Assembly (NCBI GenBank): GCA_015832175.1
Contig: WJXW01000009.1
Span: forward strand, 1,736,001 to 1,800,000
Length of the DNA: 64,000 nt
Direction: 5' to 3'
Origin: Paraphaeosphaeria minitans
Taxonomy: Eukaryota; Ascomycota; Dothideomycetes; Pleosporales; Didymosphaeriaceae
How positions within the stretch are numbered: position 1 is the stretch's first letter; the number at the start of each line of letters is the position of its first letter. Of this stretch, positions 1 to 64,000 are shown one piece after another. A program made the position numbers and the translations under genes. The notes under the pieces are model-generated. The model searched no databases, was not told the origin of the DNA, and saw only the letters and a list, made by a program, of their open reading frames with translations.

Positions 1-2780
1 CCCTTTACCTTACTAAGAGAGTACAGGAAATAGACATATATGTTTACGGAAAAGGAAGGAAAAGCAAACCTACCTAAATATTAACCCTAGGATCTTATAA
101 TAGACCTAGAAGAAGGGAAGACGCCACCCTTTAGACTACTATATAGTAAGACAGAAGAAGAACTCCTTAAAGAACGTAATTTTATTAAGACAAACCTTAA
201 GAAAGGATATATATAACTATTAAAGTTACTAGTAGTAAGCCCTTTTATGTTTGTTAAGAAAAAGGATAAATTAGACAGACTATACGTTAACTACTAACAA
301 CTTAACAACATAATAATAAAGAACTAATATCTACTACTAAACATTATAGAGCTATGAGATTAACTATCTTAAGCTAAGATATTTATAATAATGAATCTAA
401 GAGATAGTTACCACCGTATATAAATTAAGAAAGGTAAAGAATGGAAAACAGCGTTTTGATTACGCTATAAACTATTTGAATATAAGGTTATATCTTTTAG
501 ACTTATAAACGCACTAGTAGCTTTTATAGCACTTATTAATAACGTACTTTGCAAACATCTAGACATATTTATTATTGCGTATATAGATAATATCCTTGTC
601 TTTTCTAAAAATAAATTAGACTACACTAAGCATGTATAGATAGTACTAGAAGCACTAGACAAAGTATACCTTTACATTAAACTTAAGAAATGTAAGTTTA
701 ACGTTAAATAACTTAAATTCCTAGGATATATTATTACTATAGAAGGAATTAAGATGGCACTAAGTAAAGTTAAATATATTAAGAACTGGCTAATACTAAA
801 GATAGCTAAGAACATCTAAGAATTTTTAGGATTCTGTAGATTTAATTAATAATTCATCCAAGATTATATAAAGGTTATAATACCTTTAATAAATTTTACA
901 AAGAAGGACGTAGCCTTTAAATAGATAGATAAGTGCGGAATATTATTCTAACTCCTTAAGACAGTATGTATTATAGAACCTATTCTTGTTTATTTTAGAA
1001 GCGATAAACTACTGTGCTTTAAAATAGACGCTAGCGATCTTACGCTAGGCGCCTGCGCCAAATAAGAATATAATAGTAAATAGCACCTAATTGCCTATTA
1101 CTTATGTAAATTTAATAACGCCAAAACATAATACAATGTATATAATAAAGAACTCTACGCTATTATTAAAGCCTTAAAGCACTAGAGGATTTATGCGCTT
1201 AGTTACTTAACGCTAGAAATCTATATAAATTATAAGAACCTTCTAAGGTTTTTAATAATAAAAGAACTTACGCCATGATAACAAAGATGGTTATAAACTA
1301 TAGGGCAGTATAACTTTAGAATTATCTATGTAGCTAGAAAAGAAAATGGCAGAGTAGACGCTCTTAGCTAACAAAGTAATTTAGTAGGAGAAAAGGCAAA
1401 AACCTTCTCTGCAATCCTTCGCAAAGCTAAAAATAGATCTCTAGAGCTAATAGTAGAACTAAATTAACTTTTAGTAATTAACTAAGAAGTTCTGGAACAT
1501 CTACAGACTAAGATTATCTAACAATACTACAATAACCCTATATATAGACACCTAGGCATCACAAAAACAATGAAACTTATTTAAAGGAATTACACCTTTA
1601 AAGGAATTAAGGAAGCTGTAATAACTTACATCTATAAATGTGCAGAATACTAAAGAAATAAATATAGTACACATCTTAAATATGGAGAGATGTAAGCAAT
1701 CAAAATACTAATAGCACTATAGGAAGACATTACTATAGATTTTGTCACAGGAATTCTAAACTCTAAGGATCTAATAACAGGAATTAAATACGACAGTATA
1801 CTAGTAATAGTCTGCTAACTAACTAAGTATGTTAAGCTTATTCTATGCCTTAAAAGAATAACGGCAAAGGAACTCGCTTTTCTTATTCTAGACAGACTAA
1901 TTAGACACTATAGAATCCTAAAAACAATTATTAGCGACAGAGACAAGCTCTTCACGTTAAATTATTAGATAACGCTTATAGCACTGCTTAGAACAAAACA
2001 AAAGCTATTAACAGCTTACTATCTACAAACGGACGGACAGACAGAACGTACGAACTAAACTATAGAAACGTACCTACGCATCTACTGTAACAGTTAGAAG
2101 AATAACTAGGTTTTATTACTACCTATAGCACAGTTAGCCTATAATAACAAAGTATTAGCAGCATTACGACATACACTATTCTATATAAACTATAGAAGAC
2201 ACCCACATCTCTTTAATTAATAATTTCTTATAACAATTAAAGCAAAAGAAGCTATAGATATAGTAGAAAATATAAAGAAAATACACTAATAACTCTAAAA
2301 GAATCTTAAGAAAGCTTAGCAGCAATTAATTTCATATTAAAATAGAAAATAAAAAATGGCACCTTAGCTAAAGAAGGGGGATAAAGCATATCTGCTTACA
2401 AAGAACCTTTAAACTTAGAAGAAAAAACACAAGAAACTAGATTATATTAAGGTTGGACTATTTTATATTTCTAAGCAAATATTACTAGTGAACTATAAGT
2501 TAGAACTACTGCCAGATGCGAAGATACACCTAGTATTTCACGTATTACTACTAGAACCAGCAGACCCTAATACACTAGTTGAAACCACCTTCTACTACCA
2601 GACTAAGGAAGAAAATAAATTTAAGGTTAAAAGAATTCTAGAATATAATTAGTATAACAACACATACCTTGTTAAGTGGAAAGGTTACCCATATAGCAAA
2701 AACACCTAGGAACTAAAAAACAATCTAGGAAACTATTAGTAAAGGATTAAGGAATTCTATTAGAAACACAAACATACCTA
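1..2780 (+). pseudogene. pol: pol of element A (RT, RNase H, integrase, chromodomain), RIP-inactivated
   Basis: This frame encoded the replication enzymes of a Ty3/gypsy element: reverse transcriptase, RNase H, integrase and a C-terminal chromodomain that in chromoviruses guides integration to heterochromatin. Visible landmarks are the RT active site at 580-591, here Y-I-D-N instead of Y-I-D-D; the RNase H word DASDLTLGA near 1027; the integrase HLGI and paired-Cys zinc region near 1545-1650; and a chromodomain core with KWKGYPYSKNT near 2676-2706. Its Trp codon is intact in this copy. Many Gln and Trp codons elsewhere are TAA/TAG. The frame converges tail-to-tail with the antisense frame that follows. 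It cannot make protein; the family assignment is secure from the domain order. Confidence 0.92.
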
Positions 2781-3257
2781 GGAGGATTATAGTACTAACG
2801 CTATAGTGTCTACTATATTAAGCGTTAACCACATTACTATAGAGTAACTAACAGTCGCTGTAGTAGTAGGATAATTAATAGTATCTGCATTTACATTCTT
2901 ACTATCCACAGTTATTTCCGCAGCTAGATATAACGTCTTCTTATAAGCACACTCTTTAGCCTAAGCTAGTATTTTCTTATTTTGTAACAACCGCACTATT
3001 AGAAGAGACAATGCCTTTTTATCCTTTTTAACCTTCTTCTTGTACTCCTTATAAGTCTTATCTAGTGATAACTAGCTTATGTTCACACACAGACAACTTA
3101 AGTGAACACATTTAGAACACTTTAAACCTAAACCTAGTATAACATAGTAAATAGAATCTTTAAAACTATAATTAATGCAAGGGCTCTCTGCAATAATATT
3201 AGCTTCTTAGATCTCGCGATACAATTAATGTTTTTAAATAGTAAAGTTACTGGGCAT
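2778..3257 (-). pseudogene. Antisense accessory ORF, type 1 (element A)
   Basis: On the strand opposite to pol, an ATG at 3257 opens a 480-bp frame (159 codons) ending at TAG 2778-2780, inside the pol-LTR interval. The N-terminal third has spaced Cys residues, including a K-C-x2-C-x4-C/S-x-C-type cluster. The middle is a Lys/Glu-rich helix likely to form a coiled coil, and the C-terminus is hydrophobic. Only a few codons are interrupted, by TAG/TAA at probable Gln positions. Copies B and K have the same frame with the same start, stop and length. From memory, small fungal proteins combining a Cys-rich motif with a coiled coil look similar, but I cannot name a family. The opposite (pol) frame is also rather open here, so the coding strand is inferred from the conserved start, stop and composition. 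Confidence 0.6.
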
Positions 3258-3367
3258 AATGCTAACAGACGTACTTATAGTAAGTAGGGTTAGTAGAACA
3301 GCTTACGTAACAATAGCTAAGGTCTAGACATATAATTTAGAACAAATCTATAAAAGAAAGGGGATAA

Positions 3368-3797
3368 TATTAGGATCTAAAATCCATATAATAGTAGGAA
3401 GCTGGTTTTGTACCTAGTGGGCGTATAGTAAGGATTGAGCGGGGACTTAATACTAGCTACGCCTTAAATAAAGGAGTTACGTAACTACTCTCTATAGAGC
3501 GCTTAATTACTCTGTGCAAAGTATAATATACGTAACTACTTTATATAGAGCGCTCTCTATAGAGCGCTTCCCACAAAGCAGACTTTGCTTAGTATATAAA
3601 AACGTAAGGATGGACTCTCTATACTTATGTTTAATCTATTTATTAATCTATTGTTTGGATTCTAGTAGACTAAATTATTAACTTATTACACTTTGCAAGA
3701 TACTATTATATTAATAAGACCTTTTACCTTCTGTAAGTACTCCTGCCTAAGAACCAACCTTAACCCTTTAGGACTAGCTACCCTCTTGAATTTAATA
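3368..3797 (+). repeat. 3' LTR of element A (430 bp, U3 type 1)
   Basis: The LTR begins tattagg (RIP form of TGTTAGG) and ends tttaata (TTTAACA). It is preceded by the purine-rich tract aaagaaagggga at 3353-3364, the plus-strand primer. It aligns end to end with the LTRs of B and K. The U3 contains the palindromic words agcgctctctatagagcgct near 3560-3570, upstream of a shared R/U5 block starting agtatata at 3591. Confidence 0.92.
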
Positions 3798-4530
3798 AAA
3801 ACAACCCTATGTTACTTAAGTACAAACTAAATGTTTAGGACTATATAGAACCCCACTAGGCACTAAAAAAAATGTAACCCTATAAAAATAAGGAATTAGA
3901 CTACGTACTAAAGTACTACCTAGACCACCAAAATCCTACATACTAATTCTATATGTGGACGCATTGCGAAGAACTAATATACGTATAATATAAGACAAAG
4001 AAAGAGAAGAACAAGAAATAACCTAGAAGGAAACTACGCTGCAGATAGATGTGGATAGACTACCCTATTACAGCTTACAATAAACACCTCTAGAATAAAT
4101 AATAAATAAAATACTTTCCTTACCTCGCGCTAAAGGGTAACAAATACTATAATATACTTATTAATAAAGACTGTATACAACTGTACTAGTATACGTGCCT
4201 AAACTAAGACTACAAATACTACTATATAGCTAAACGTTTGGACAGCTTTATAAACTACCCTATATAAGAAGTAATAATAGAGCTACTAATTTAACTAGTA
4301 TATAGGAACAGTAAAGACTGCAGAAGGAAAAACAGAAGAACATCCTTATAAGAAGAAGAAGAAAAAGATAATCTATATAAGCTATATACTTAAAAATAAC
4401 AATAGAAGCGGATGCTTAGAAACGTATACTAGGCACCAGAACTCAACTACAACCTATATAAATAGATGTCTTTTTTAGGCCTAAACTTAGACAAGAAAAC
4501 GCCTTTATTAAATTAAATACTATAGTAAGC
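3798..4530 (+). pseudogene. gag: gag of element B, C-terminal part
   Basis: The segment corresponds to the part of Gag after the CCHC zinc knuckle in K. It includes a second Cys/His-rich region around 4060-4270 (spaced Cys and His followed by K-Y-F-P, then a later C-L-N-x-D-x-K-Y-Y word) and an acidic Glu run near 4355-4375. The frame meets the pol frame at the heptamer TTTTTTA at 4471-4477, which sits in the gag frame as T-TTT-TTA. Numerous TAA/TAG stops replace Gln/Trp. The N-terminal half lies outside the window because of the A insertion. Confidence 0.85.
4471..4477 (+). promoter_or_regulatory. Candidate -1 ribosomal frameshift heptamer TTTTTTA (element B)
   Basis: The heptamer is read X-XXY-YYZ in the gag frame and lies where the gag and pol frames overlap. 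The identical heptamer and flanks (atgtc before, ggcctaaac after) occur at the same place in I and K. Confidence 0.6.
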
Positions 4531-7829: not shown

Positions 7830-8309
7830 CTAGGAGGATTGCAGTACTAACGCTATAGTATTTACTATATTAAGCGTTAACCACATTACTGTAAAGTAAC
7901 CAACAGTCGCTGTAGTAGTAGAATAATTAACAGTATCTATATTTACGTCCTTACTATCTGTAGTTATTTCTGCAGCTAGATACAATATTTTCTTATAAGC
8001 ACGCTCTTTAGCCTAAGCTAGTATCTTCTTATTTTGTAATAACTACACTATTAAGAGAGACAACGCCTTCTTATCCTTTTTAACCTTCTTTTTATACTCT
8101 TTACAAGTCTTATCTAGCGACAACTAGCTTATATTTACACATAGACAACCTAAGTGAATATATTTAGAACACTTTAAACCTAAACCTAGTATAATATAGC
8201 AAATAGAACCTTTAAAACTATAATTAATATAAGGGCTCTCTATAATAATATTAGCTTCTTAGATCTTGCGATACAATTAATGTTTTTAAATAGTAGAGTT
8301 GCTAGGCAT
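7830..8309 (-). pseudogene. Antisense accessory ORF, type 1 (element B)
   Basis: Opposite-strand frame from ATG 8309-8307 to TAG 7832-7830, 480 bp, co-linear with the copies in A and K. This copy is informative: the codon three before the end is CAA (Gln), where A and K have TAA. That identifies TAG as the likely true stop and TAA in the other copies as a RIP change. It has the same Cys-rich N-terminal region and Lys-rich helical middle. It lies between the chromodomain end of pol and the LTR, converging with pol. Function unknown; strand choice is inferred as for A. Confidence 0.6.
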
Positions 8310-9446: not shown

Positions 9447-10112
9447 ATAGCTAATAATATTATTAGTCTATTAGGCGCTAGTGCCCTTACTACTAGTGTC
9501 TTTGTGCTAGTTATTATAGGCTAGACTAGATTACGCATCTAGGTTAACCTCCCCACTAGTTCGCCTAGTATAAGGGCCTTTATATAGAGCCTGGCAGTAG
9601 ATATATAACAAATCCTCTAGAGTATTTTTGTTTTTATTATATAATACTAATAGGTGTAGGATAAAGAGGCTAAAGTGGCCTAGATACCCTTCTAGGATAT
9701 TATTGTGCAAATCCTAGTTAGCACAAACCTCTAGTAGTAGACTACTTACGTTGTATAACGTAAGAGATATTAGTAAGTAGTACTTATCTAGTTACGCGGC
9801 CAAGTTTAAAATAAGTCTTATACTTACTTATACAGCACTACTAATGCTAGTAATTAGGTGTTCCTAGATTATTATGCAATCCTAGGTTATAAGTCTAGAT
9901 TATACAGCGCCTATGTGTAGAAGTTATATAGTGCTTATTGTGAGCGTCGTGCATAGGGGAAGGGGGTGAATATCTTTGTTATATAAAGGGGTAGGTAGGC
10001 CTAGTCTTAAGATATCTAAATTATTAATATAGAAAATATATTCTTTAATGTCTTTATATAATCTCCTATAATATGTTCCCTCTCTTATAATAAAACTATA
10101 ATGTTAAATTAG
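9447..10112 (+). pseudogene. Antisense accessory ORF of copia element C1
   Basis: On the plus strand, opposite to C1 pol, one frame of about 222 codons runs from a probable ATG (now ATA at 9447-9449) to the first of three consecutive TAGs at 10110. All interruptions are TAA/TAG at likely Gln/Trp sites, with none that needs an indel. The predicted product is Gln-rich with hydrophobic segments near the N-terminus and a basic, Tyr-rich C-terminal half. The frame reads equally well in C2 (from 21234). A CA/TA microsatellite just upstream differs by 4 bp between C1 and C2, which argues that the start lies after it. I do not recognise a family. It converges tail-to-tail with pol, whose end is near 10230. 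Confidence 0.55.
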
Positions 10113-28262: not shown

Positions 28263-29758
28263 TAGGATTTCTTCTGCTCTATCTTTCTCCTAACCCTTAC
28301 TTCTACTCTCCTCTCTCTCTTTTAGTCCTTCTAATACCTGTTTAATAACTCTGCTGTAGTTATAGCTGCAGTTAACTACACTTTAGGTAGAATAGCCGCT
28401 TCTAGTGCTAGTGGTAGGAAAGGTAGTAATAACTTAAATAAGTATAGCCCTACTAGTAATATAAAAGCGGACCTCTTTATTTACCCTTTTAAGTCTACTA
28501 AGGAGTATATTATTAAGTAGCATATATTATCCTAAAAACCTTTCGCATCCTATTACTAACTTTTCTAGTTAGGGTAAGGGCTAATTAGCGTGTGAACTAT
28601 AATCTTCTACGTAAACTAGCTTACTTTATCTATAGCCTAGGTATGTAGGGTGTTACCCTAGGTCCTATTCTTTGCACTGCTAGCGTCTATAAGAATAATA
28701 GCTACTTAGACTTTACTATTTAGCACTTTAATATTAGTAATAATAAAGCGGAGACTATTACTAAGTTCTTTAGCTTAGGCACTAGAGAGGCTCTATTAAA
28801 GCGTAGATACTATAATGCTAACATTAATATAGGTATTTAGCATACCGCTACCTTCTTTTATTTTCCTCTTTCTTCTCTAATTAACTATTGCTGCACCTAG
28901 TACTAGAACAAGAGTAGGAAAAGTAAGCTCTATTTTAGTAGTAAATATAGTGTTTCCTATTTAAAAAGTAAGCTACTAAACTAAGGAAAGTGTAATAAGT
29001 GCTAGATAAATAGTAACTATACTTCTTACTCCTTTTATTATAAGTTCTAGTCCTAATTTCCTATTACCTAAGCTAATATCTCTTTCTTTTTAGGCAAGCT
29101 AGCTAACCCTAGTACTAGTCCTTCTATAGATAATATTATTTTAGTTACTAATATCCTTCCTATTAGTATAACCCGCTCTTAGGCTCCTTTTAGCTGCGCT
29201 TCTAAGGCTATTTCTACCCTTAATACTCCTATTCCTAGGGAGCCTATAGAACCCTAATACACTATTACTATAAACTATAGTCTTCTTTCTTTAGCAGCCC
29301 TTTAAGATTATTTCTAAAAGTCTTTTAGAGGTTCTTTCTAGTCTCCTTTTAGTAGTGCTTTATTATTTTAGGGTTTTAGTCCTCTTATTTAAGGGGGTTC
29401 TTATTCTAGCTCTAATTATAGATCGCTTAGTCCTAGATTACCTATACGCCTAGATTTTTCTACTAAAGAGAATGCTCCTCTTTAGCCTTAGCTATTCTCT
29501 TAGTCTACTTATTCCTAGTATTCTTATTCTAGTTCTCTTTTACCTTATTAGCGGTCTATTAATTAGGCTACCTAAAATTGTGCTAGATCTCTTCTTTAGT
29601 CTAAAGTAACTAGGGCCTCTAGCTCTACAGAGCCCTAAACCCTAAATACTTATTAGTCCCGCTGCCACTATAGAGATAATATTACTGTTAATAATAAGGA
29701 GAATAATAATTAGTGCTTTAATATATCTTCCTCCCTCTCTTTTACCAACTGCCTATAG
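28263..29758 (+). pseudogene. Antisense accessory ORF of gypsy element D
   Basis: On the plus strand, opposite to pol, a long frame ends at TAG 29756-29758, close to the pol end (about 29780). It reads in one phase from about 28502 to the end, with only TAA/TAG at Gln/Trp-like sites. The part before about 28500 reads in another phase, so there is one indel, an intron, or a later start. The first half resembles a globular domain (words such as LRKLAYF, GPILCTAS, FFSLGTREAL). Then comes a Cys pair (G-K-C-N-K-C near 28990), and the last third is Ser/Gln-rich and probably disordered. No family recognised. Tail-to-tail with pol. Confidence 0.5.
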
Positions 29759-40572: not shown

Positions 40573-40581
40573 CACCCCCTG

Positions 40582-41204: not shown

Positions 41205-42187
41205 TTACGCTCTTTCTATTGTTTAGAGCTTTACTAACTCTTTTAAATATCTAATAACCTAGCTAAAGCACGCGTAGTAAAAGCTGCAAAAGCTACTAAA
41301 TAAAGCTCCTAATCCTCCTGCTAAGATCCTCCTACTCTACTAGCTCCTCCTACCCTAGCTCTAGGCCCTTAGCGATCGCTTAGTGCTTTTAGACAAGTAA
41401 GCTGCTTAGGCTACTTAAAGGGAGCTCTAGCAGAAAAGAGTAATAGACGCTGCTATAATAACGCTTTAAGCTTAGGTAGGCGCTACTATACCTACTTTAC
41501 TTACTCTTACACTGCTATATATAGGGTTATCCTATTACTTTAGCTAATTTCGCTAATTATTTCTATAGCCAGCCGTATATTTAGACTCTAGCTATAGAGT
41601 TTATCCGCTATTAACTATTAGAGGGTGCTAATATAAGCTTTTATTCTAAGATTTGTTCTAGGTTTAGCTAATACTTTCTACAGGAGAGGCTAATTACTAA
41701 GCTGCGTAAGAGGGTTAAAGTAGCCTTATAAGCTCCTCCTCCTACTAGCAGTTAGGAAGAGTAAGCTTAGTACATAGCTACTATCCCACTCCCTCCCTCC
41801 TAGCTAATCCTTAGTAGAGGATAGGGTAATTACCCTCTTACTCCACCTATTAAGGAGCAGCGTGGTCGCAGCCAATACCCTAATTAAAATAGCTAAATAA
41901 GCGGCCTATTAGCTCTAAAGCAAAGTAGAGGCTAGGCAAGTGCTTCTCCTCCTACTAATTAAAGAAGGGGAAGCTAGGGTAAGCTATCACCTACTACTAA
42001 TTAAAGGAGAGGTAGAGGAGGTAAATAGGGTAAAGAATCACCTACTACAAAGAGGAGGAGAGGAGAAGGATAGGGAGAATCTCCTACTACTAATTATAGG
42101 GGAGATTCTCGCACCCCTGCGATTAAGCAAAGGAAGAAGAGGGTCTACATACTTATAGATAAGCTCTTTAATCTCCTCTTCCTCTAA
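41205..42187 (+). pseudogene. Antisense accessory ORF of copia element G (Gag-like, RG-rich)
   Basis: A long frame opposite to pol. The first part (about 41221-41500) reads in one phase, with Leu/Gln/Lys-rich heptads that look like a coiled coil. From about 41462 a second phase takes over, implying one indel, and continues to TAA 42185-42187. It contains a compact helical domain (A-N-F-A-N-Y-F-Y-S, then E-G-A-N-I-S-F-Y-S-K), a Pro-rich linker and a basic tail with four imperfect S-P-T-T-N-x-R-R-G units near 41950-42090. RG-rich tails commonly bind RNA, so an RNA-binding Gag-like role is possible, but this is inference. All stops are TAA/TAG. It converges with RNase H. Confidence 0.58.
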
Positions 42188-42309: not shown

Positions 42310-45300
42310 TATTGTGCTCGCATCTTACAGATTCAATAGCCTTTTAAATCTATTAAACTACTAATAAGTAAGAGCCTTTATAAGGCCATCTGCTAGCATT
42401 TCACTAGTTAGAAAATATTCTACTTAAAACAATCCTTTCGTATACTCTTACTATAACTACATATTCTAAATATCTACATGGCGCAGTTAAGTAGTGATTC
42501 TTTCGTTCTTTCTAATCACTAAACAAATAGTTTGAAGATTGTTGTAATAGACCTTCTATAAAGGTCCTAGATCTAGAGTAAGCTTAGTAAAGAATCTCTT
42601 AATCGCTATAGCTTCTTTACTTATATGTTTAAGCGCTAGAAGCTCTACTTCTATTATTAAAGTGGTAATTGTGTTCTATTAAGCTACTTTCTATAGGATA
42701 GCTCCTCTAAACAATAGGATAATATATCCATAGGAAGATCGCCGTAATATTAGATTATTAGCAAATAAGGCATCTCTATATATTAGCAGATTAGGTCCAT
42801 TGTAGCCACCAAAGACTATAGCCTACTATCTAGTTTAATAGAGGTAAAGAATCACACGATTAATAGCAGCAAAGTGTTCTTTACTTAGATTTGTTAGAAA
42901 GTGTAATAGCTTTAACACTACAAAGGCTATATCTAGGCGTAGTATAATCGCTGTGTAGAGAGCTAATCCCACCTCTTCTTAAAAGAGCTTTATTTATTAA
43001 GGAGTAGCTTCTCCTATACTTAGAACAAGATCTTCTGCCAATAGAGGTATAGAAGGGAAGCTCCTAGAGTTTAAAAGGTTAAACTTTTTCGTAATCTTAT
43101 TAATATAGGTATTATGGACTAGAGAAATTAATCTTACTTCTCTATCCCTAATCACTCAAACACCTAGGAACCACTCTACTAGTCCTTTTAATTTAATCTT
43201 ATATTTGTTCGCAATTTTCTTCTAAAAATCCAGGGCTTCTTTCTCTTTACTCTTGTAATAGAGAAGAAGAATGTCGTTAATATAAAATAGAACAATAATA
43301 CTTTAATCACTGTTAAAGAAAAGGCATGGCTCTTCTAGCGAAGCTAAGAGTCTATAAAATCGAAGTGATCCTGTAAATTCCTTATACTAAAGAAGTGGTA
43401 AATCTCTTAAGCTATACAAAGCTTAATTTAATCTTACACACTTTTCTGGCTTTTTAAAACTATTAGGTAATTCACAAGTTACTAGATTGGCAGCTGTAAT
43501 AAAAGCATTTAGAAACGCTCCTACTACATTAAATTATAAGATTTCTAGATCAAATTCTGCTGCTAGAGCTACAGCTAATTAAAAAGATCTTACTACTAGG
43601 GTAGTAGTATAGGTGGAGTAGAGAGTATTCTTTTTTTAAAGATCTCCTTTTACAACAATTCGAGCTTTGCACTTTTTAAAGTATCTATTTTAATTAAACT
43701 TATAGGTAAAGACCTACTTTAAAGGGAGTAGTCGCTCTAACACCTCTAATTATTCAATCTCTGTCTAGGTACCTTTATCTTACAAAGTCGAGATCTCCTT
43801 GTAAGCAGTAAGGAGGAATAGCTTCCTATATAGATAATTATAAAGGTGTTTCTATAGGGTTGGCTTTAGTATAAGCTCATCTCTGTGAGTCTAAGCTGCA
43901 TAAGACGCTCCAGGCGCCTTTCTAAGCATAGAAGCGAATACTATCGCATTTAGTATAATATATTCTTCTTGCTTAGACTAGGCCTCTACTACTCCTAGTA
44001 TAAACATGTGCTCTAATATTACATTAAGATCACTTTAAAGATAATTAGCGATTAGTGCATAAGCACCCAGCTTCTACCTACCCCCTAGCTAATCGTCCTA
44101 ATTATTTTACTTCCTTAATCTTCGCAATAGCAGATAGCGATTTATTAGTTAGTTAATTTCTAGTGCTTTACTACAATTTCGCCTACTTATTCTACTTACC
44201 TCTAGATAGATCTGCCTTCGCCTTTAGCGCGCTAGTGGGTTATCTGCTTTATTTGGCGTAATTAAGTTATCTGCGCCAGGTTAATTAGCAACCCAATTAG
44301 TTTCTACTAATAAATAGGGTATTAAATCCCTAGATTCTGGCGGGCCAGCTCTCCTAGTAGTGTTCTGGTAGCTACCAGATATCTCTTAATTGCTTAACAG
44401 ATTACCCCTAAGATTACCTGGCTCTAGTGTCTGGTTAGGGGTCACAAGTCCTGTGCTTCCTTTCCCACTTAAGCGAATTCTTAGCTACTAGCTGGCTAAG
44501 CCTACAGCTCGCTTAGTAGTAGGTACCTTAGGTTCCTAATTACTTAGCTAGCCTACTTCGCTTTTAATCGCCTAAAGGTCACCTATAGGTCTAGTAGCGG
44601 TTCTTATATACTTATTTATTTTAGGAAGAATATTAAGCGCGTTTTTATACACTTCTCTTAAATCGTTTAGCTCTCCTTCTTAGAGGCTTTCTACTATTTT
44701 TAACACTTCTATCTTTAGAATAGATTGTTCCTCTAATCTTTTATAGAATAAGGACTTATTAAACCTTACGTTTCGTGTGGTAATTACCTAATTAAGCTAG
44801 GGAATCTATATTTAGTAGATATTAGAAGCTTTGTAGCCTACTAGGTATCTAATATGGCCCCTAGGATTTACTTTAAATCCTCTTCTATCTCGCCCAGCTG
44901 CACGCTCCCAATCTAAAGGGTAAGCTTGGCAGCTATAGGCGTAGACAGCACTCTAGTTTAGACAAAGATTGGCTGTCCTATATTGTGTTTTTGCTAGTTC
45001 GAAATAACAAAAATATTGTCTAAACTAAGCATCTAACGTTTTATTAGGTGATTAATAGCCTAATGCTAGGCTAGGAATTATTCCTTAGAGCTAGCATGCC
45101 GCTTATATAATCTTAGGCTAGAGATTTAATGGTAGATTTGCGCTTATTTACATTTTAATTACTTTTATTATAAGCTCCTGGCCTACTCTTTCTATAGCGC
45201 CATTAGGCTCATGCGTATAGGGCGGTGGTCTACTAATTATTATCCCTTCCTAATTAGCCTAAAATTCGTACTAGGATTTCCCTCTCTATAGAAGTGTTGC

Positions 45301-47720: not shown

Positions 47721-48176
47721 TGTTAAATCCAAGAGGGTAGCTAGTCCTAAAGGGTTAAGGTTAGTTCTTAGGCAGGAGTACTTATAGAAGGTAGAAGGTC
47801 TTATTAATATAATAGTATCTTATAAAGTGTAATAAGTTAATAATTTAGTCTACTAGAATCTAAATAATAGATTAATAAACAGATTAAATATAAGTATAAG
47901 AAGCTTATTCTCGCGTTCCTATATACTAAGTAGTCCTACACATCCTAGAATCCTATATGTCCTAGAGTTCTATATGTCCTAGAGTCCTATACGTTCTAGA
48001 GTCCTATGTAGGCGAGTCCTACGCGTCCTAGAGTTCCTATATAGGCGAGGCCTATGTAGTCCTTAGGATCCTTAGGACCTATAACTTGTTATTTAACTAC
48101 TTAGTTAGCTAACTCTAGTAAACTAGTAGTCTAATAAGCTTACGCCCTACTACTTATACATAGCTAGATTCTAATA
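47721..48176 (-). repeat. 3' LTR of H (456 bp, U3 type 2)
   Basis: Plus-strand ends tgttaaatcc and attctaata. The U3 holds five to six imperfect 17-bp repeats of the cctatacgtcctagagt type (47932-48040). Confidence 0.9.
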
Positions 48177-48206: not shown

Positions 48207-48767
48207 ATAAGTTAACTACCTATAAAGTTATTATTTTATTCTATTTAATATTGCTATAGTTAAGCTAATTATCTTAAAAAAGACTATATTTTTATAATAA
48301 TTACCTATTTATACTGCGCTAAGAAGAAATATACTTATTATTTTTTTTCTTTATACTCTTAGTGTACTAACTATATTAGATAAAGAAACTAGAAGTGTAA
48401 GCCTAAAGAGATTCTTTTGCTAAATTATTTAAAAATAGATACTAAAATAGAGAGGTTAGAAAAGTTAGAGGCTAAAGAGAAGGTAAAACTCTATATTAAG
48501 AAAGAGCTAGCTAAAGTAGCTCTCCTTCGCGCCTATTAGGTGTAAGAGAAGATAGCGCGCTTATATAATTAATAAAAGAAATTACGTTAGAAGGAATAAG
48601 AATTGTTTAATTATAGTATAAGTACTATAGATAAGTTAGAAGCGCTTAAGGCGTAGGAAAAGTTAGTGTAGGCTACTATATTAATAAATCTTAACACGCT
48701 ATTAGGCGCTAAGGTAATTAACTAGTCTATTTTATAGGCTAGCCCTTATACTAGTAGTAATTCCTAG
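48207..48767 (+). pseudogene. Antisense accessory ORF, type 2 (element H)
   Basis: Opposite to H pol, a 561-bp frame from a probable ATG (now ATA, 48207) to TAG 48765-48767, with no indel relative to the copy in I. The N-terminal third has many Cys (or Tyr from Cys), including a C-x2-C-x6-C word (C-T-N-x-I-R-x-G-N-x-K-C). It is followed by a long Lys/Glu/Leu heptad region (K-I-E-R-L-E-K-L-E-A-K-E) with strong coiled-coil character. Stops are TAA/TAG at Gln/Trp-like sites. Probably a small zinc-binding coiled-coil protein; function unknown. Confidence 0.65.
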
Positions 48768-48789
48768 GTGCGTTCTAGTTGTTTCTTTA

Positions 48790-49459
48790 TAATTTCTAGC
48801 GTTTAATTATAGAAGTCGTTTATCTATTATTAATAGTTAGATAGGTTTTCCTTAGGTTCCTATGTGTTTTTACTAAAGAAATACCCTTTCTACTTAATAA
48901 GGTATTCTTTAGTGTCTGTGTACGTATTATATACTTATAGGATTTATTCTACTTTAAATTTAGTTTCTTTCTAAGCTTAGTAATAAAAGGTGGTTTTAAT
49001 TAGCGTTTCTAGGTCTACTAGTTCTAGTAGTAATATATGGAATACTAGGTGTATCTTTGCATCTGGCAGTAGTTCTAACTTATAGTTCACTAGTAATATT
49101 TGCTTAGAAATATAAAATAGTCTAACCTTAATATAATCTAGTTTCTTATGTTTTTTCTTCTAAGTTTAAAGGTTCTTTGTAAGTAGATATACTTTATCCC
49201 CCTTTTTTAGCTAAGGTGCCATTTTTCGTTTTCTATTTTAATATAAAATTAATTGCTGCTAAGCTTTTTTAAGATTTTTTTAGAGTTATTAGTGTATTTT
49301 CTTTATATTTTCTGCTATATCTGTAGCTTCTTTTGCTTTAATTATTGTAGGAAATTATTAGTTAAAGAGATGTAGGTGTCTTCTATAGTTTATATAGAAT
49401 AGTGTATGTCCTAATACTGCTAATACTTTGTTATTATAGGCCAACTATACTATAGGTAG
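48790..49459 (-). pseudogene. pol: pol of H, C-terminal integrase and chromodomain
   Basis: Minus strand shows the chromodomain (Y-L-V/x-K-x-x-G, then E-N-L near 48890-48830) and the integrase C-terminal words L-A-Y-N-N-K-V-L near 49440. The upstream remainder is missing at the H/I junction. Confidence 0.82.
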
Positions 49460-53891: not shown

Positions 53892-54452
53892 CTAGGAATT
53901 GCCATTAGTATAAGGGCTAGCCTATAAAACAGACTAGTTAATTACCTTAGCGCCTAATAGCGCGCTAGGATTTATTAATATAGTAGCCTACGCTAACTCC
54001 TCTTATGCCTTAAGCGCTTCTAACTTATCTATAGTACTTATACTATAATTAAACAACTTTTATTCCTCCTAATATAATTTCTTTTACTAATCGCGTAAGC
54101 GCGCTATCTTCTCTTACGCCTAATAAGTATAAAGGAGAGCTATCTTAGCTAGCTCTTTCTTAATATAGAGCTTTACTTCCTCTTTAGCCTCTAACTTTTC
54201 TAACCTCTCTATTTTAGTATCTATTTTTAAATAATCTAGTAAGGGGATCTCTTTAGGCTCGCACTTCTAGTTTCCTTATCTAATATAGTTAGTACACTAA
54301 GAGTGTAAAAAAGAAAGATAATAAGTATATTTCTTCTTAGCGCAGTATAAATAAGTAACTATTATAAAAACATAGTTTTTCTTAAGATAATTAGCTTAAC
54401 TATAGTAATATTAAATAGAATAAAATAATAACTTTATAAGTAGTTAACTTAT
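53892..54452 (-). pseudogene. Antisense accessory ORF, type 2 (element I)
   Basis: 561 bp from ATA (probably ATG) 54452-54450 to TAG 53894-53892, the same length and register as in H. It shows the Cys-rich N-terminal region, then the charged coiled-coil region rich in K-I-E-R-L-E-K-L-E type heptads, then a hydrophobic tail. It occupies the same slot as the type 1 frame of A, B and K but shares no evident sequence with it beyond general plan. Confidence 0.65.
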
Positions 54453-54482: not shown

Positions 54483-54938
54483 TATTAGGATTTAGCTATA
54501 TATAAGTAGTAGGGCGTAAGCTTATTAGACTACTAGTCTACTAGAGTTAGCTAACTAAATAGTTAGATAATAGGTTATAGGTCCTAAGGGTCCTAAGGAC
54601 CGCATAGGCCTCGCCTATACAGGAACTCTAGAACGCGTGGAACTCGCCCACACAGGACTCTAGGACGTATAGGACTCTAGAACGTATAGGACTCTAGGAT
54701 GTATAGGATTCTGGGATGTGTAGGACTACTTAGTATATAGGAACGCGAGAATAAGCTTCTTATACTTATATTTAATCTATTTATTAATCTATTGTTTAGA
54801 TTCTAGTAGACTAAATTATTAACTTATTATATTTTATAAGATACTATTATATTAACAAGACTTTCTACCTTCTGTAAGTACTCCTGCCTAAGAACCAACC
54901 TTAACCCTTTAGGACTAGCTACCCTCTTGGATTTAACA
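54483..54938 (+). repeat. 3' LTR of I (456 bp, U3 type 2)
   Basis: It begins tattaggattta and ends tttaaca; purine tract agaaggggaggata precedes it. U3 has 17-bp repeats of the ggactctaggacgtata type at 54640-54723. From 54728 it matches the K LTR. Confidence 0.92.
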
Positions 54939-56843: not shown

Positions 56844-57273
56844 TGTTAGGATCTGAAATCCACATAATGGCAGGAAGCCAGTTTTGTACCTAGTGGGCGC
56901 GTAGCAAGAATTGAGCGGGGACTTAATGCCAGCTACGCCTTAAATAAAAAAGTTACATAACTGCTCTCTATAGAGCGCTTAATTGCTCTGTGTAGAGTAT
57001 AACACACGTAACTGCTCTATATAGAGCGCTCTCTATAGAGCGCTCCCCACAAAGTGGACTTTGCTTAGTATATAGAAACGCGAGGATAGACTCTCTATAC
57101 TTATGTTTAATCTATTTATTAATCTATTATTTGGATTCTAGTAGACTAAATTATTAACTCGTTATATTTTGTAAAATACTATTATATTAATAAGACCTTC
57201 TACTTTCCGTAAGTACTCCTGCCTAAGAACTAACTTTAACCCTTTAAGACTAGCTACCCTCTTAGATTTAATA
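56844..57273 (+). repeat. 5' LTR of K (430 bp, U3 type 1)
   Basis: TGTTAGG...tttaata. Contains the imperfect palindrome gagcgctct-ctat-agagcgctc at 57024-57045, upstream of the TATA-like agtatataga at 57067. Confidence 0.94.
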
Positions 57274-57290
57274 TCTTAAACACTCTTAAT

Positions 57291-59175
57291 ATAAGTACTT
57301 TACAAACTCTTACCTCTTCTATAGCTTTAGGTGCCGCTAAGATTACTCCTATAAAGGATAGTAGTAAGGCGTATAAACCTAATCTCTACTTTGGCAAACA
57401 ATCTTAAACTAACGTCTAGATTCTCTAGTTAGACCTCTACTTCTTTAACTTAGACAAACCCCTTAAAGACAAAAAGAAGGTTATTTTTGCAGCGATATAT
57501 ATGCGAGGAGATGTAGGATTATAGATCTATCTCTACTTTAAAAAGTACCTAGGAATAGACTACAATAATAATAATAACAATTACGTAAACAAGTACACTA
57601 ATGTAGTTAACATTATTAAAGATTATAATAACTTTAAGAAATGCCTTAAATAACTCTTTAGAATTGCTAATAAGGACTCTATTACGAAAGTAAAGATTTA
57701 GACTATAACTTAGAAACAATTAGTAGCTAAGTATATAGCTAAGTTTTGTAGGTACGCTATATAACTTAACTAGGACAATAAATCTCTTTAGGATATATAT
57801 AAATAAGGACTTAAATAGAAACTATGTAAGGAACTCTTACGTAGTAGTGCACAAATCGCTAACCTTAAAAAACTATATAAAGAAACTATTAGGATTAATA
57901 GAGAGTAGTTTTTATTGCAACAAGAGCTCTACTAAAACCCTAGGGCAATAAGCTTTAGATAACTAGTAAAAGTAGTTTATAAGAACCTTATTAGAATTGT
58001 CTAAAAGCAATAGCTAAGGAACTACTAGAGATACAAACTAATAGAAGATGTCTAGTTTAACTATATAGGCAAAAGAAAAGGAGGAAGGATAGGCCCTAAG
58101 TAGCCTAATAAACGCGTTTTTAATAGAAGTTAACAACTAATAACTAAGACCTATAAATGCTTTACATGTAGCAAACTAGACTACATAGCCAGGAACTGTA
58201 GATCGAAGAATAAAGTCTATTAAACTGAGTTAAATGTACTAACTATTAAGGACTAAGAACCTAATAAGAAATAAAAAGTTGTTATAACGTTATTTAGTTA
58301 CTAACGCGTTACACTAGAGTAAAGTAAGCAATTAGATTTACCTAACTTATAACTATACAAAGATCTAGAAGATAACTCTAATATATACTATAACGTAGAA
58401 GATATAGAAGAGATACTAAGATCTCCTACTCCTCACCTATAAAGTAGGCAGGAAGAAGACAACCCTATGTTACCTAAGTACAAACTAAATATTTAGGATT
58501 ACATAGAACCCTACTAAGCACTAAAAAGAATGCAACCCTATAAAAATAAGAAGTTAGACTACGTACTAAAGTACTACCTAGACTACTAAAATCCTATATA
58601 CTAATTCTATATGTGGATGTATTGCGAAGAACCAATATACGTATAACATAAGGCAAAGAAAGAGGAGAATAAGAAATAACTTAAAAAGAAACTGCGCTAT
58701 AGATAGATATAGATAGACTGCCCTATTACAGCTTGCGACAAACACCTCTAGAATAAATAATAAGTAAAATACTTTCCTTACCTCGCGCTAAAGGGCAACA
58801 AATGCTGTAATATACTTATTAATAAAGACTACATATAACTATACTAGTATACGTGCCTAAACTAAGACTGCGAATACTACTATATAGCTAAACATTTAGA
58901 TAGCTTTGCAAACTGCCCTATGTAAAAAGTAATAACAGAGCTACTAATTTAACTAGTATATAGAAATAGTAAAGACTGCGGAAGGAAAAACAGAAGAACA
59001 TCTTTATAAGAAGAAGAAGAAGAAAATAATCTATATAAGCTATATACTTAAGAATAATAACAGAAGCGGATACTTAGAAACGTATACTAGACACTAGAAC
59101 TTAACTATAACTTACACAAATAGATGTCTTTTTTAGGCCTAAACTTAGACAAGAAAATGCCTTTATTAAATTAAA
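57291..59175 (+). pseudogene. gag: gag of element K
   Basis: A probable ATG (now ATA, 57291) opens a frame of about 628 codons with constant phase. In order: Gag capsid-like region (to about 57950), basic linker, CCHC zinc knuckle at 58158-58200 (C-F-T-C-x4-D/Y-I-A-R-N-C), then about 320 further residues. The latter include a second Cys/His cluster (D-C-P-I-T-A-C-D-K-H, K-Y-F-P, T-C-L-N-x-D-C) around 58710-58925 and a Glu run near 59010. It ends in overlap with pol. Roughly half of this Gag lies after the usual zinc knuckle, which is longer than typical. TAA/TAG stops inactivate it. Confidence 0.9.
59129..59135 (+). promoter_or_regulatory. Candidate -1 ribosomal frameshift heptamer (element K)
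   Basis: In the gag frame the codons are TCT TTT TTA, giving the canonical slippery form X-XXY-YYZ (T-TTT-TTA). A -1 slip places the ribosome in exactly the phase used by protease, RT and integrase. Confidence 0.65.
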
Positions 59176-62100
59176 TACTATAGTAAGCATAGTATTAATT
59201 AAGCTACTAGTATAGCTTAAAGGAATATAGGCTTAAGCTCTTATAGACTTAGGAGTAGGAAAGAACTTTATATTTTATTAGATAGTAAGACAAGCAGGAC
59301 TTATAATATTAAAGAAAAAAGTACCCTATATTGTCTATGTCGCGAATAGATCCCTAATGCCTAAGACACCTTAAATATACTAGGAGGTTACTACCATAAT
59401 AATAGTCTAAGGATATAGAGAGGAACTTACCTTAGATGTCTTACTAGGATCTAAGCATAAGTTAGTCTTAGAATTACCTTAGTTAATAATATACAACCTG
59501 CAGATTAACTAGGGTATAAAGAAAATATTATTTAAACGCTATAATTATGCATTATAAGTAAAGCCTACGTATTAACTAAAAATAATAGTAGATAAGGGAG
59601 TTATTAATAACATAATACTGCGATAGATAGTTAAAAAACAGAAGCACACCTTAGTAGACGCTGGCAGGAACTACTAGGTTAAGAAGTGTAAGAAAGAGGA
59701 CAACAGCACACCCTTTACCTTACTAAGAGAGTATAGGAAATAAACGCATATATTTATAGAAAAGGAAGAAAAAGTAAACCTACTAGAACATTAACCCTAG
59801 GATCTTACAATAGACCTAGAAGAAGAGAAGACGCCACCCTTTAGACTACTATATAGTAAGACAGGAGAAGAACTCCTTAAAGAACGTGATTTCATTAAAA
59901 CAAACCTTAAGAAAGGATATATATAACTATTAAAGTTACTAGCAGTAAGCCCTTTTATGTTTATTAAGAAAAAGGATAGATTAGATAGACTATACGTTAA
60001 CTACTAATAACTTAACAACATAACAATAAAGAACCAATATCTACTACTAAATATTACAGAGCTATAAGATTAACTATCTCAAGCTAAGATATTTATAATA
60101 ATAGATCTAAAAGACGGTTACCACCTTATATAAATTAAGAAAGGTAAAGAATAGAAAACAGCGTTTTAATTACGCTATAGACTATTTAAATATAAGGTTA
60201 TGCCTTTTAGACTTACAAACGCACTAGCAGCTTTTATAGCACTTATTAACAACGTACTCTGCGAATATCTAGACATATTTGTTATTGCGTATATAGACGA
60301 TATCCTCGTCTTTTCTAAAAGCGAATTGGACTACACTAAGCATGTACAGATAGTACTAGAAGCACTAGATAAAGCATGCCTTTACATTAAACTTAAGAAA
60401 TGTAAGTTTAACGTTAAATAACTTGAATTCCTAGGACACATTATTACTATAAAAGGAATTAAGATAGTACTAAGTAAAGTTAAATGCATTAAGAACTAGC
60501 TAATACTAAAAATAGCCAAGAACATCTAAGAATTCTTAGGATTTTATAGATTTAATCGACAATTTATCTAAGATTACGTAAAGGTTATAATACCTTTAAT
60601 AAATCTTATAAAGAAGGACGTACCCTTTAAATAGATAGATAAGTGTAGAATGTTATTCCAACTCCTTAAAATAGTATATATTATGGAACCTGTCCTTGTT
60701 TATTTTAGAAGCGATAAACCACTACGCTTTAAAACAGACGCTAGCGATCTTACGCTAGGCGCCTACGCTAAATAAGAATATAATAGTAAATAGCACCTAA
60801 TTGCCTACTACTTATGCAAATTTAATAACGCTAAAACACAATACAACGTACACAATAAAGAACTCTACGCTATTGTTAAAGCCTTAAAGCACTAGAGGAT
60901 TTATACGCTTAGTTACTTAACACTAGAAATCTACATAGATTATAAAAACCTTTTAAGGTTCATAACGACGAAAGAACTTACGCTATAATAATAAAGATAG
61001 TTATAAACCACTAGGTAGTATAAGTTTAAAATCATCTATATAGCTAGGAAAGAAAATGGCAGAGTAGACGCTCTTAGCTAACAAAGTAATCTAGCAGGAG
61101 AAAAGGTAAAAACCTTCTCTGCAATCCTTTGCAAAGCCAAAGATAGATCTCTAGAGCTAATAGTAGAACTGAATTAACTTTTAGTAATTAACTAAGAAGT
61201 TCTAGAACATCTATAGACTAAGATTATCCAATAATACTACGATAACCCTATATATAGACACCTAGGTATTATAAAGACAATAGAACTTATTTAAAAGAAT
61301 TACACCTTTAAAGGAATTAAGGAAGCTATAATAACTTATATCTATAAATGTGCAGAATGCCAGAGAAACAAACATAGCACATATCTTAAATATAGAGAGA
61401 TGTAAGCAATCAGAATACTAACAGCACTATAGGAAGATATTGCTATAGATTTTGTCACAGGAATTCTAAACTCTAAGAATCTAATAATAGGAATTAAATA
61501 CAACAGCATACTAGTAATAGTCTACTAACTAACTAAGTATATTAAGCTTATTCTATGCCTTAGAAGAATAACAGCAAAAGAACTTACTTTTCTTATCCTG
61601 GACTAACTAGTTAGACACTACAGAATCCTAAAAATAATTATTAGCAATAGAGACAAGCTCTTTACGTTAAATTATTAGACAACGCTTATAGCACTGCTTA
61701 GAATAAAACAAAAGCTATTAACAGCTTACCATCTATAAACAGACAGACAGACAGAACGTACGAACCAAACTATAGAAACGTACCTACGCATCTACTATAA
61801 CAGTTAGAAGAATAACTAGGTTTCATTACTACCTATAGCACAGTTAGCCTATAACAACAAAGTATTAGCAGCATTAGGACATACACTATTCTATGTAAAC
61901 TACAGAAGACACCTATATCTCTTTAATTAATAATTTCCTACGACAATCAAAGCAAAAGAAGCTATAGATATAGTAGAAAATATAAAGAAAATACACTAAC
62001 AACTCTAAGAGAATCTTAAGAAAGCTTAGCAGCAATTAATTTTATATTAAAATAGAAAATAAAAAATAGCACCTTAGCTAAAGAAGGGGGATAAAGTATA

Positions 62101-62487
62101 TCTGCTTATAAAGAACCTTTGAACTTAGAAGAAAAAACACAAGAAACTAGATTATATTAAGGTTAGACTATTTTACATTTCTAAGCAAATATTACTAGTG
62201 AACTATAAGTTGGAACTACCGCCAGATGCGAAGATACACCTAGTATTCCACGTATTACTACTGGAACTAGCAGACCCTAATACACTAGTTAAAACCACCT
62301 TCTACTACCAGACTAAGGAAGAAAATGAATTTAAGGTTAAAAGAATTCTAGAATATAATTAGTATAACAATATATACTTTATTAAGTAGAAAGGTTACCT
62401 ATATAGTAAAAACACCTAGGAACTAAAAAACAATCTAGGAAACTGTTAGTAAAAGATTAAAGAATTCTATTAGAAATATAAATATAC
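59135..62487 (+). pseudogene. pol: pol of element K, least-damaged copy
   Basis: One phase from the frameshift site to the chromodomain. Landmarks: protease word A-L-I-D-L-G-V-G (59237; the Ser after Asp is Leu); RT with V-M-P-F-R-L-T-N-A and active site Y-I-D-D intact at 60290-60301, within a 73-codon stop-free stretch (60200-60421); RNase H T-D-A-S-D-L-T-L-G-A near 60736; integrase zinc region with H-L-G-I and C-x2-C (61260-61365); chromodomain at about 62375-62440 with its Trp codon now TAG. Stops remain, so it is not functional, but it is the best template for the family. Confidence 0.93.
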
Positions 62488-62967
62488 CTAGGAGGATTAC
62501 AGTACTAACGCTATAGTGTCCACTATATTAAGCGTTAACCACATTACTATAGAGTAACTAACAGTTGCTACAGCAGTAGGACAATTAATAGTATCTACAT
62601 TTACGTTCTTACTATCTATAGTTATTTCTGCAGCTAGACATAATATCTTCTTATAAGCACACTCTTTAGCCTAAGCTAGTATCTTCTTATTTTATAACAA
62701 CCGCACTATTAGGAGAGACAACGCCTTCTTATCCTCTTTAACCTTCTTTTTATACTCCTTACAAGTCTTATCTAGCGACAACTAGCTTATGTTTACACAC
62801 AGACAACCTAAGTAAACACATTTAAAACACTTTAAACCTAAATCTAGTATAACGTAGCAAACAGAACCTTTAAAACTACAATTAATATAAGGGCTCTTTG
62901 TAATAATATTAGCTTCTTAGATCTTGCAATATAATTAATGTTTTCAAATAGTAGAGTTACTAGGCAT
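62488..62967 (-). pseudogene. Antisense accessory ORF, type 1 (element K)
   Basis: ATG at 62967-62965, TAG at 62490-62488, 480 bp, the same as in A and B. The Cys cluster and Lys-rich helix (K-E-Y/x-K-K-K-V-K-E-D-K-K) are readable. There are a few TAA/TAG interruptions, including TAA at 62499-62497 where B has CAA. It lies 110 bp inside the 3' LTR, opposite to pol. No promoter could be defined; transcription would have to start in or near the 3' LTR. Confidence 0.62.
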
Positions 62968-63077
62968 AATACTAACAGACGTACTTATAGTAAGTGGGGT
63001 TAGCAGAACAGCTTATGTAACAATAGCTAAGGTCTAGACATGTAATTTAGGACAAATCTATAAAAAAGAGGGGATAA

Positions 63078-63507
63078 TGTTAGGATCTAAAATCTATATA
63101 ATAGCAAGAAGCTAGTTTTGTACCTAGTAGGCGCGTAGCAAGGATTAAGCGGGGACTTAATACTAGCTACGCCTTAAACAAAGGAGTTACGTAACTACTC
63201 TCTATAGAGCGCTTAATTGCTCTGTGCAGAGTATAACACACATAACTACTCTATACAGAGCGCTCTTTATAGAGCGCTCCCTATAGAGCGGACTTTGCTT
63301 AGTATATAGGAACGCGAGGATAGACTCTCTATACTTATATTTAATCTGTTTATTAATCTATTATTTGGATTCTAGTAGACTAAATTGTTAACTTATTACA
63401 CTTTGTAAGATACTATTATATTAATAAGACCTTCCACCTTCTATAAGTACTCCTGCCCAAGAACCAACCTTAACCCTTTAGGACTAGCTACCCTCTTGGA
63501 TTTAACA
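63078..63507 (+). repeat. 3' LTR of K (430 bp, U3 type 1)
   Basis: TGTTAGG...TTTAACA, preceded by the purine tract aaaaagagggga (63064-63075). The palindromic block is altered (agagcgctctttatagagcgct). Confidence 0.95.
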
Positions 63508-63512
63508 CTATA

Positions 63513-64000
63513 TTAAATACCTAGTAGGCTATAAAGCTTCTAATATCTACTAAATATAGATTCTCTAGCTTAATTAGGTAATTACTATACGAAACGTAAG
63601 GTTTAATAAGTCCTTATTTTATAAAGAATTAGAAGAATAATCTATTCTAAAGATAGAAGCGTTTAAAATAGTGGAAAGCCTCTAAGAAAGAGAGCTAAAT
63701 AATCTAGAAGAAGCGTATAAAGACGCGCTTAATATTCTTCTTAAAATAAATAAGTATATAAGAACTGCTACTAGACCTATAGGTAACTTTTAGGTGATTA
63801 AAAGTAAAGTAGGCTAGCTAAGTAATTAGGAACCTAAAGTACCTACTACTAAGTAAGCTGTAGGCTTAGCTAGCTAGCAGCTAAGAATTTGCTTAAGTAG
63901 GAAAGGAAGTATAGAACTTATAACCCCTAATTAGATACTAGAGCTAGGTAATCTTAGGGGTAATCCATTAAGCGATTAAGAGATATCTGGCAGCTACTAG
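63513..64000 (+). pseudogene. pol: Element J continued: copia integrase region
   Basis: It resumes J after K and parallels G minus-strand 44860 to about 44370, the region after the integrase core. It runs off the window end. Confidence 0.85.

What the first reader, a model, noticed from the sequence alone, without database searches (positions are those of the whole stretch)
1..64000. Every retrotransposon family with a visible 3' end carries an antisense ORF tail-to-tail with pol
In A, B, K (2778-3257, 7830-8309, 62488-62967), H, I (48207-48767, 53892-54452), C1/C2 (9447-10112, 21234-21852), D (28263-29758) and G (41205-42187) an extra frame lies between pol and the 3' LTR on the opposite strand. 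These are two gypsy and two copia lineages. Antisense genes in LTR elements are known in scattered cases; recurrence across unrelated families in one genome is striking. Antisense transcripts or proteins of such elements could restrain copy number or help Gag, but that is inference.
Basis: partly seen in the sequence, partly recalled or inferred. Interest (0 to 1): 0.88.

Follow-up and report, generated by a model that had tools for sequence, protein, structure and literature searches.

The report
Swappable antisense genes in retrotransposons
One mutation-riddled gypsy retrotransposon family in this fungus-like genome carries a small gene on the opposite strand at its 3' end, apparently in two interchangeable versions, but the claim that every retrotransposon family here has such a gene is not borne out.

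Summary
Partly right. The window is RIP-riddled; its longest stop-free run is 108 codons, so no claimed antisense ORF is open. A, B and K are one chromodomain gypsy family with a genuine antisense gene between pol and the 3' LTR: nine metagenome proteins match that frame in each single copy (27 of 27 pairs, 40-57% identity), and six cysteine columns have Zn2Cys6-like spacing. H and I are the same family (same LTR and pol) with a different 3' unit, whose antisense frame shows five of those six cysteines in the same spacing. Each unit has its own repeat array: 31 of 31 ABK and 30 of 30 HI copies. The units were swapped: HI units follow two different pol tails, 16 and 14 of 30 copies. Pol and antisense stops overlap in one CCTAGG. 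G, a copia element, is plausible but unproven. D's frame has the phase of the pol frame's shadow. C's lies on the element's own probable strand. So the support is one gypsy family in two versions plus one candidate, not four lineages. Antisense genes at this place are known (Boty brtn, plant Retand); swappable units of this kind I did not find described.

The parts
57064..63505 (+). Element K, the fullest copy of the chromodomain gypsy family (LTRs 57064-57271 and 63298-63505)
   Evidence: Self-comparison; RT, RNase H, integrase zinc and Tf2-1 SH3 domains above cut-off in one frame, chromodomain match below cut-off near 62366-62471
62488..62967 (-). Antisense gene of K (ABK version), 160 codons with stops
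   Evidence: Homologs by tblastn; Zn2Cys6-like spacing
2778..3257 (-). Antisense gene of A (ABK version)
   Evidence: Homologs by tblastn
7830..8309 (-). Antisense gene of B (ABK version)
   Evidence: Homologs by tblastn
53892..54452 (-). Antisense frame of I (HI version), 187 codons with 17 stops
   Evidence: Cys spacing, no indels in 30 copies, periodicity p 0.058; no homolog found
48207..48767 (+). Antisense frame of H (HI version; element H is on the minus strand)
   Evidence: Inverted copy of I's unit
62487..62492 (.). CCTAGG in which pol stop (TAG 62489-62491) and antisense stop (complement of 62488-62490) overlap; same at 2777, 7829, 53891 and 48763
   Evidence: intact in 25 of 31 ABK and 24 of 30 HI copies
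62281..62478 (+). K-type end of pol (chromodomain tail)
   Evidence: Diagnostic transversions; in 31 of 31 ABK and 16 of 30 HI copies
48775..49000 (-). H-type end of pol (alternative chromodomain tail, about 73% identical to the K tail)
   Evidence: in 14 of 30 HI copies; chromodomain above cut-off in L044 and L061
63198..63290 (.). 14-bp repeat array of the ABK unit next to the 3' LTR
   Evidence: RIP-tolerant motif in 31 of 31 ABK copies
54654..54727 (.). 17-bp repeat array of the HI unit in I
   Evidence: motif in 30 of 30 HI copies
47932..48041 (.). 17-bp repeat array of the HI unit in H
41205..42187 (+). Candidate antisense frame of copia element G (40374-47696, minus strand); unproven
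   Evidence: 19 stops against 28 in its partner frame; convergent with RVT_2 in 23 of 40 copies; no homolog
43060..43734 (-). RVT_2 reverse transcriptase of G
28263..29758 (+). Claimed antisense frame of D: best read as shadow of the minus-strand pol frame
31616..31894 (-). RNase H domain that fixes D's pol strand and frame
9447..10112 (-). Claimed frame of C1 (also 21234-21852 in C2): on the element's own probable strand, not antisense

Best explanation
A, B, K, H and I are copies of one chromodomain Ty3/gypsy family. Between pol and the 3' LTR it carries an accessory gene on the opposite strand for a small protein with a six-cysteine cluster near the N-terminus (Zn2Cys6-like spacing) followed, in the ABK version, by a long predicted helix. 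Two alternative 3' cassettes exist, each an antisense gene plus its own short-repeat array by the 3' LTR, and cassettes were exchanged between elements that share LTR and pol. Shown: position, homology of the ABK frame, cysteine spacing in both, private arrays, mosaic pol tails. Inferred: the protein is a DNA- or chromatin-binding regulator acting on its own cassette's repeats and 3' LTR; exchange came about by template switching in reverse transcription; the gene is transcribed from a promoter in or beside the 3' LTR. D and C have no supported antisense gene; G may have one.
For: Homologs: 9 of 35 candidates, E 4e-40 to 1.5e-11 (mixed query) and 27 of 27 protein-by-copy pairs by tblastn on single window copies, E 5e-45 to 2e-16. 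Mean stops per copy in the ABK frame 8.0 against 13.7-21.4 in the other five (31 copies). Cys pattern only in the ABK and HI antisense frames among 54 frames (15,516 codon columns), reached by 8 and 7 of 5000 column shuffles. Indel events: ABK unit 1 in 14.9 kb against 15 in 10.2 kb of its spacer; HI unit 0 in 16.8 kb against 5 in 8.2 kb. Codon 1 ATG in 25, ATA in 6 of 31 ABK copies. Cassette exchange. Private arrays and CCTAGG.
Against: No Pfam zinc-cluster match in the window frames or the nine homologs. No homolog for HI (0 of 99 candidates), no profile similarity of HI to ABK, no ATG at HI's first codon (ATA in 30 of 30), no Cys seen at HI's third position (0 of 30). Periodicity of ABK and HI is only p 0.074 and 0.058. 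The model of P0004 is poor, mean pLDDT 53. No expression, binding or dN/dS data. The homologs' genomic context is unknown (contigs of 0.6-1.7 kb). The 14-bp motif also turns up at other window places, such as 15339 and 35117.
Confidence: 0.6

Rival explanations
1. By-product: in RIP-mutated DNA a coding frame leaves a stop-poor shadow on the other strand, and the reader saw shadows.
For: Wrong-strand frames with fewer stops than the true frame in 3 of 17 windows of validated frames, equal in 3; D's frame has exactly this phase.
Against: For ABK: protein homologs in that frame, cysteine pattern, indel pattern. The ABK and HI units lie past the pol stop.
Confidence: 0.04
2. Only the ABK unit holds an antisense gene; the HI unit is a non-coding or differently coding 3' end.
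For: No homologs, 16.7 stops per copy against 19.1-23.7 in other frames, no profile similarity to ABK, no ATG at codon 1.
Against: Five Cys columns in Zn2Cys6-like spacing, Tyr at the sixth; no indel in 30 copies; periodicity points to this frame and strand; frame ends in the same CCTAGG.
Confidence: 0.15
3. The antisense transcription itself is what matters: convergent transcripts give double-stranded RNA that silences the element or tunes copy number, and any protein is secondary.
For: Tail-to-tail arrangement with overlapping stops; proposed for plant elements in PMC7264820 (passages).
Against: Conserved protein sequence and cysteines are not needed for RNA effects.
Confidence: 0.2
4. One reading: all families here, gypsy and copia, independently carry antisense genes.
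For: G's + frame has 19 stops against 28 in its partner, is not in pol's shadow phase and lies at a fixed place, RVT_2 at 873-879 bp on the other strand, in 23 of 40 listed copies.
Against: D and C as above; H/I same family as A/B/K; no homolog of G (0 of 5075 candidates) and no periodicity in 13 copies (p 0.56).
Confidence: 0.07

Closest known systems
brtn of Boty-like retrotransposons of Botrytis (Zhao et al. 2011, Virology 417:248; original not held; seen as citation and in passages of PMC8365987, PMC7264820, PMC4227169, PMC5987419)
   Same: Chromodomain gypsy element with an added antisense gene; PMC7264820 lists it among antisense ORFs between pol and the 3' LTR
   Different: Sequence of BRTN not available here, so homology untested; two exchangeable versions with private repeat arrays not seen in the passages read
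Antisense TRP28 ORFs of plant Retand elements (PMC11963269, abstract and passages)
   Same: Antisense ORF between pol and 3' LTR, predicted DNA-binding protein, tandem repeats in the same region in about half
   Different: Plant non-chromovirus lineage; TRP28 domain not found in our proteins by Pfam
Grande gene23, RIRE2 and PvRetro13 antisense ORFs of plants (PMC7264820, passages)
   Same: Position and orientation; nuclear localisation reported for Grande
   Different: No Zn2Cys6-like cluster mentioned in the passages read
Fungal Zn2Cys6 transcription factors of GAL4 type (spacing rule recalled, from no call)
   Same: C-x2-C-x6-C-x9-C-x2-C-x6-C, then a helix in the model of homolog P0004
   Different: No Pfam match; small, borne by a mobile element

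Membership tests
Chromodomain Ty3/gypsy (chromovirus) | RT, RNase H and integrase domains in one pol frame | tested here: met
   K
Chromodomain Ty3/gypsy (chromovirus) | C-terminal chromodomain | tested here: met
   Above cut-off in L044 and L061 (H tail); below cut-off in K (16.2 bits against 25.1); not found in L039 (K tail)
Antisense additional ORF between pol and 3' LTR | Coding frame opposite to gag-pol, past the pol stop, before the 3' LTR | tested here: met
   ABK; HI: supported
brtn (Boty) | Sequence homology to BRTN | not testable with these tools
   BRTN sequence not held; protein search returned no named protein
Zn2Cys6 zinc cluster | Cysteine spacing C-x2-C-x6-C-x5-12-C-x2-C-x6-8-C (recalled) | tested here: met
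   ABK six of six columns; HI five of six with Tyr at the third
Zn2Cys6 zinc cluster | Match to the Pfam zinc-cluster profile | tested here: not met
   Not among the matches; so it is not filed as a member
Retand TRP28 antisense ORF | TRP28 (PF04195) domain | tested here: not met
Ty1/copia (G) | RVT_2 reverse transcriptase | tested here: met
   23 of 40 module copies
LTR retrotransposon superfamily for C | Recognisable pol domain | tested here: not met
   Both strands; sensitivity is limited in RIP-mutated DNA

The most novel reading that the evidence does not exclude
The 3' end of this family is an exchangeable cassette: an antisense zinc-cluster protein gene together with the repeat array that this protein recognises. 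Swapping cassettes, sometimes along with the chromodomain tail, re-specifies how an element is regulated or targeted, so that elements with the same pol and LTR form separate compatibility groups.
Probability: 0.25. Interest if true: 0.72.

Novelty: new variant of a known kind. Interest (0 to 1): 0.5.

Why it matters
The function of antisense accessory genes of retrotransposons is open (so PMC7264820 and PMC11963269, passages). A family with two interchangeable antisense units, each tied to its own repeat array and sharing a cysteine spacing, gives a direct test: does each protein bind its own array? The work also shows a pitfall: stop-poor antisense frames in RIP-mutated DNA can be shadows of the real frame, so frames read by eye overcount antisense genes.

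Tried and rejected
Codon log-odds trained on K pol ranked the pol frame first in D and G but not in the C-side gag, and did not rank the ABK antisense frame first in B or K; not used. Transversions by codon position were too few in the units. Stop counts as proof of strand rejected. hhalign of HI, C, D and G frames with the homologs and three pairs among families: nothing significant; a wider run timed out, and scripts 54 and 93 failed. Protein searches: I 0 of 99 candidates, G 0 of 5075. IMG/VR scan with the ABK family: 220 pattern matches, none confirmed. Solved structures: 4 weak matches, best E 0.039 to a designed helical barrel. The structure model was too poor for a fold search, which was not run. 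For G, a normal fit of my own to the log stop ratios of the 17 overlapping windows favours the antisense strand by about 4 to 1; weak. The claim of 2-5 indel columns in each C copy shrank to 1-2 indel events in each of 6 copies against the window copy, some of which may be the window copy's own.
Full report
SETTING. The window is G000:C9:1736001-1800000 of a 47.45-Mb assembly in 30 contigs. TpA/ApT is 1.83 and (CpA+TpG)/(ApC+GpT) 0.47, the mark of repeat-induced point mutation (RIP); GC per kb is 0.26-0.38. The longest stop-free run in 64 kb is 108 codons.

ELEMENTS. Self-comparison shows one family with LTRs of about 208 bp (3588, 8640, 38495, 47723, 54729, 57064, 63298) that takes in A, B, K, H and I. 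K (57064-63505) has RT, RNase H, integrase zinc and Tf2-1 SH3 domains in one frame above cut-off and a chromodomain match below cut-off near 62366-62471. D (27580-37188, 230-bp repeats) is a minus-strand gypsy by RNase H only. G (40374-47696, 200-bp repeats) is a minus-strand copia by RVT_2 at 43060-43734. C (about 15951 down to 8850) shows no Pfam pol domain on either strand. A purine tract before one LTR of its deleted derivative (21859-25014) suggests that C's sense is the minus strand; a moderate argument.

A, B, K: A REAL GENE. The antisense frame has 7, 7 and 8 stops in 160 codons, the other five frames 10-22; over 31 genome copies the means are 8.0 against 13.7-21.4. A search with this frame found nine metagenome proteins among 35 candidates, E 4e-40 to 1.5e-11 (the query mixed three copies). 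All nine match A, B and K singly by tblastn: 27 of 27 pairs, 40-57% identity, E 5e-45 to 2e-16. In the own genome P0004 gives 136 matches; TGA occurs in 3 of the 136 rows, the other stops are TAG and TAA. Codon 1 is ATG in 25 and ATA in 6 of 31 copies.

CYSTEINES. Allowing Tyr as a RIP product of Cys, I looked for C-x2-C-x6-C-x5-12-C-x2-C-x6-8-C with at least five columns showing Cys in some copy. Of 54 frames of nine regions (15,516 codon columns) two came up: ABK antisense at 27, 30, 37, 47, 50, 57 (six of six) and HI antisense at 34, 37, 44, 53, 56, 64 (Tyr in 30 of 30 at position 44). Column shuffles reach this in 8 and 7 of 5000 (the first run, held repeated copies and gave the same). I had noticed the pattern in both frames by eye before the scan, so the scan measures its rarity and is not a blind test. 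Pfam finds no zinc cluster: it is a spacing, not a membership.

TWO CASSETTES, ONE FAMILY. ABK and HI copies align through pol and part at its end: best alignments of the 30 HI copies to K end at 62460-62507 in 28, at 62046 and 63505 in one each. Homology resumes at the 3' LTR. In the 25 of 30 HI copies with enough pol, 21 transversion columns at 62281-62464 separate K-like from other tails. Over all copies, 31 of 31 ABK and 16 of 30 HI copies have the K tail, 14 of 30 HI copies the H tail. The HI unit thus sits behind two pol tails, and the K tail in front of two units: exchange by recombination at two places. The H tail has a chromodomain above cut-off in L044 and L061; L039, with the K tail, gave no match. 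Each unit has a private array before the LTR: the RIP-tolerant 14-bp motif occurs at least twice in 31 of 31 ABK loci, the 17-bp motif at least once in 30 of 30 HI loci; the foreign motif in 0 of 31 and 2 of 30. The 14-bp motif also occurs elsewhere in the window. Sense and antisense stops overlap inside CCTAGG, in pol phase in A, B, K and I, with CCTAGG at the same place in H; it is intact in 25 of 31 and 24 of 30 copies. CCTAGG is its own complement, so a TAG in it on one strand implies one on the other: architecture, not independent proof of coding.

PERIODICITY AND INDELS. RIP-type variable columns are rarest at codon position 2 and commonest at 3 in known pol, which gives the right frame and strand in both controls (p 0.008 and 0.010); the spacers show nothing (0.82, 0.91). 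ABK and HI give their antisense frame and strand, at p 0.074 and 0.058; C gives the minus strand (0.022); D (0.81) and G (0.56, 13 copies) give nothing. Indel events: ABK unit 1 in 14.9 kb against 15 in 10.2 kb of spacer (10 of 15 at one site in the first count), HI unit 0 in 16.8 kb against 5 in 8.2 kb.

STOP POVERTY MISLEADS. A coding frame in such DNA leaves a partner frame on the other strand, shifted by one base, that is also poor in stops. In 17 overlapping windows of validated frames the true frame has fewer stops in 11, the same in 3, more in 3. D's claimed + frame has the very phase of the pol frame's partner in the RNase H domain, and pol's own frame is about as stop-poor there (31 against 33). 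D is best read as an extension of pol; no domain match in that stretch shows it.

G. The + frame (19 stops, partner 28) is not in pol's partner phase, shows no indel in 12 fetched copies and lies opposite RVT_2 at 873-879 bp in 23 of 40 listed copies. No homolog (0 of 5075 candidates). Undecided, near even odds.

C. The stop-poor frame of 9300-10112 is on the minus strand, the element's own probable sense. Each of 6 copies has 1-2 indel events against the window copy. Not antisense on this evidence.

LITERATURE. Antisense ORFs past pol are known: Boty brtn, Grande, RIRE2, Retand, PvRetro13 (PMC7264820, passages; PMC8365987, PMC4227169, PMC5987419, passages; PMC11963269, abstract and passages). 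In the survey of fungal LTR elements PMC3248453 the word antisense does not occur in the text held (passages only). Searches listed no report of exchangeable antisense units that I recognised by title and abstract; only open-licence papers are searched.

MECHANISM. Most likely the antisense gene makes a small nuclear protein that binds DNA or chromatin at its unit's repeats by the 3' LTR and tunes expression or integration of its own element. The cysteine spacing, the helix (residues 62-117 of P0004, the only confident part of a poor model) and the private arrays point that way. Binding, expression and function are untested.

Noticed in passing
G000 contigs C15, C19, C20, part of C8, and copies on other contigs: Stop-free non-LTR, gypsy and copia reverse transcriptase frames of 1165-1386 codons stand beside heavily RIP-mutated relatives elsewhere; recent arrivals or RIP-poor compartments.
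   Followed up: no
1-8849: A and B stand in tandem sharing one LTR (3588-3795), and B lacks about 1.2 kb of the 5' internal part present in K.
   Followed up: no
21859-25014: An internally deleted derivative of element C (about 3.2 kb, LTRs 95% alike) inserted in C2; perhaps a non-autonomous form.
   Followed up: partly
15328-15556, 18337-18503, 36482-36876: Tandem repeats with units of 115, 49 and 139 bp near element ends.
   Followed up: no
16783-18174 (minus strand): Copia gag and beta-barrel domains in a frame with very few stops (5 per 981 bp), much less damaged than the neighbours.
   Followed up: no
G000, for example C1:460291-461085 and C16:196826-197620: A copia family whose RVT_2 match is split at about profile position 110-120 in many copies, as by a conserved frameshift or short intron.
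   Followed up: no
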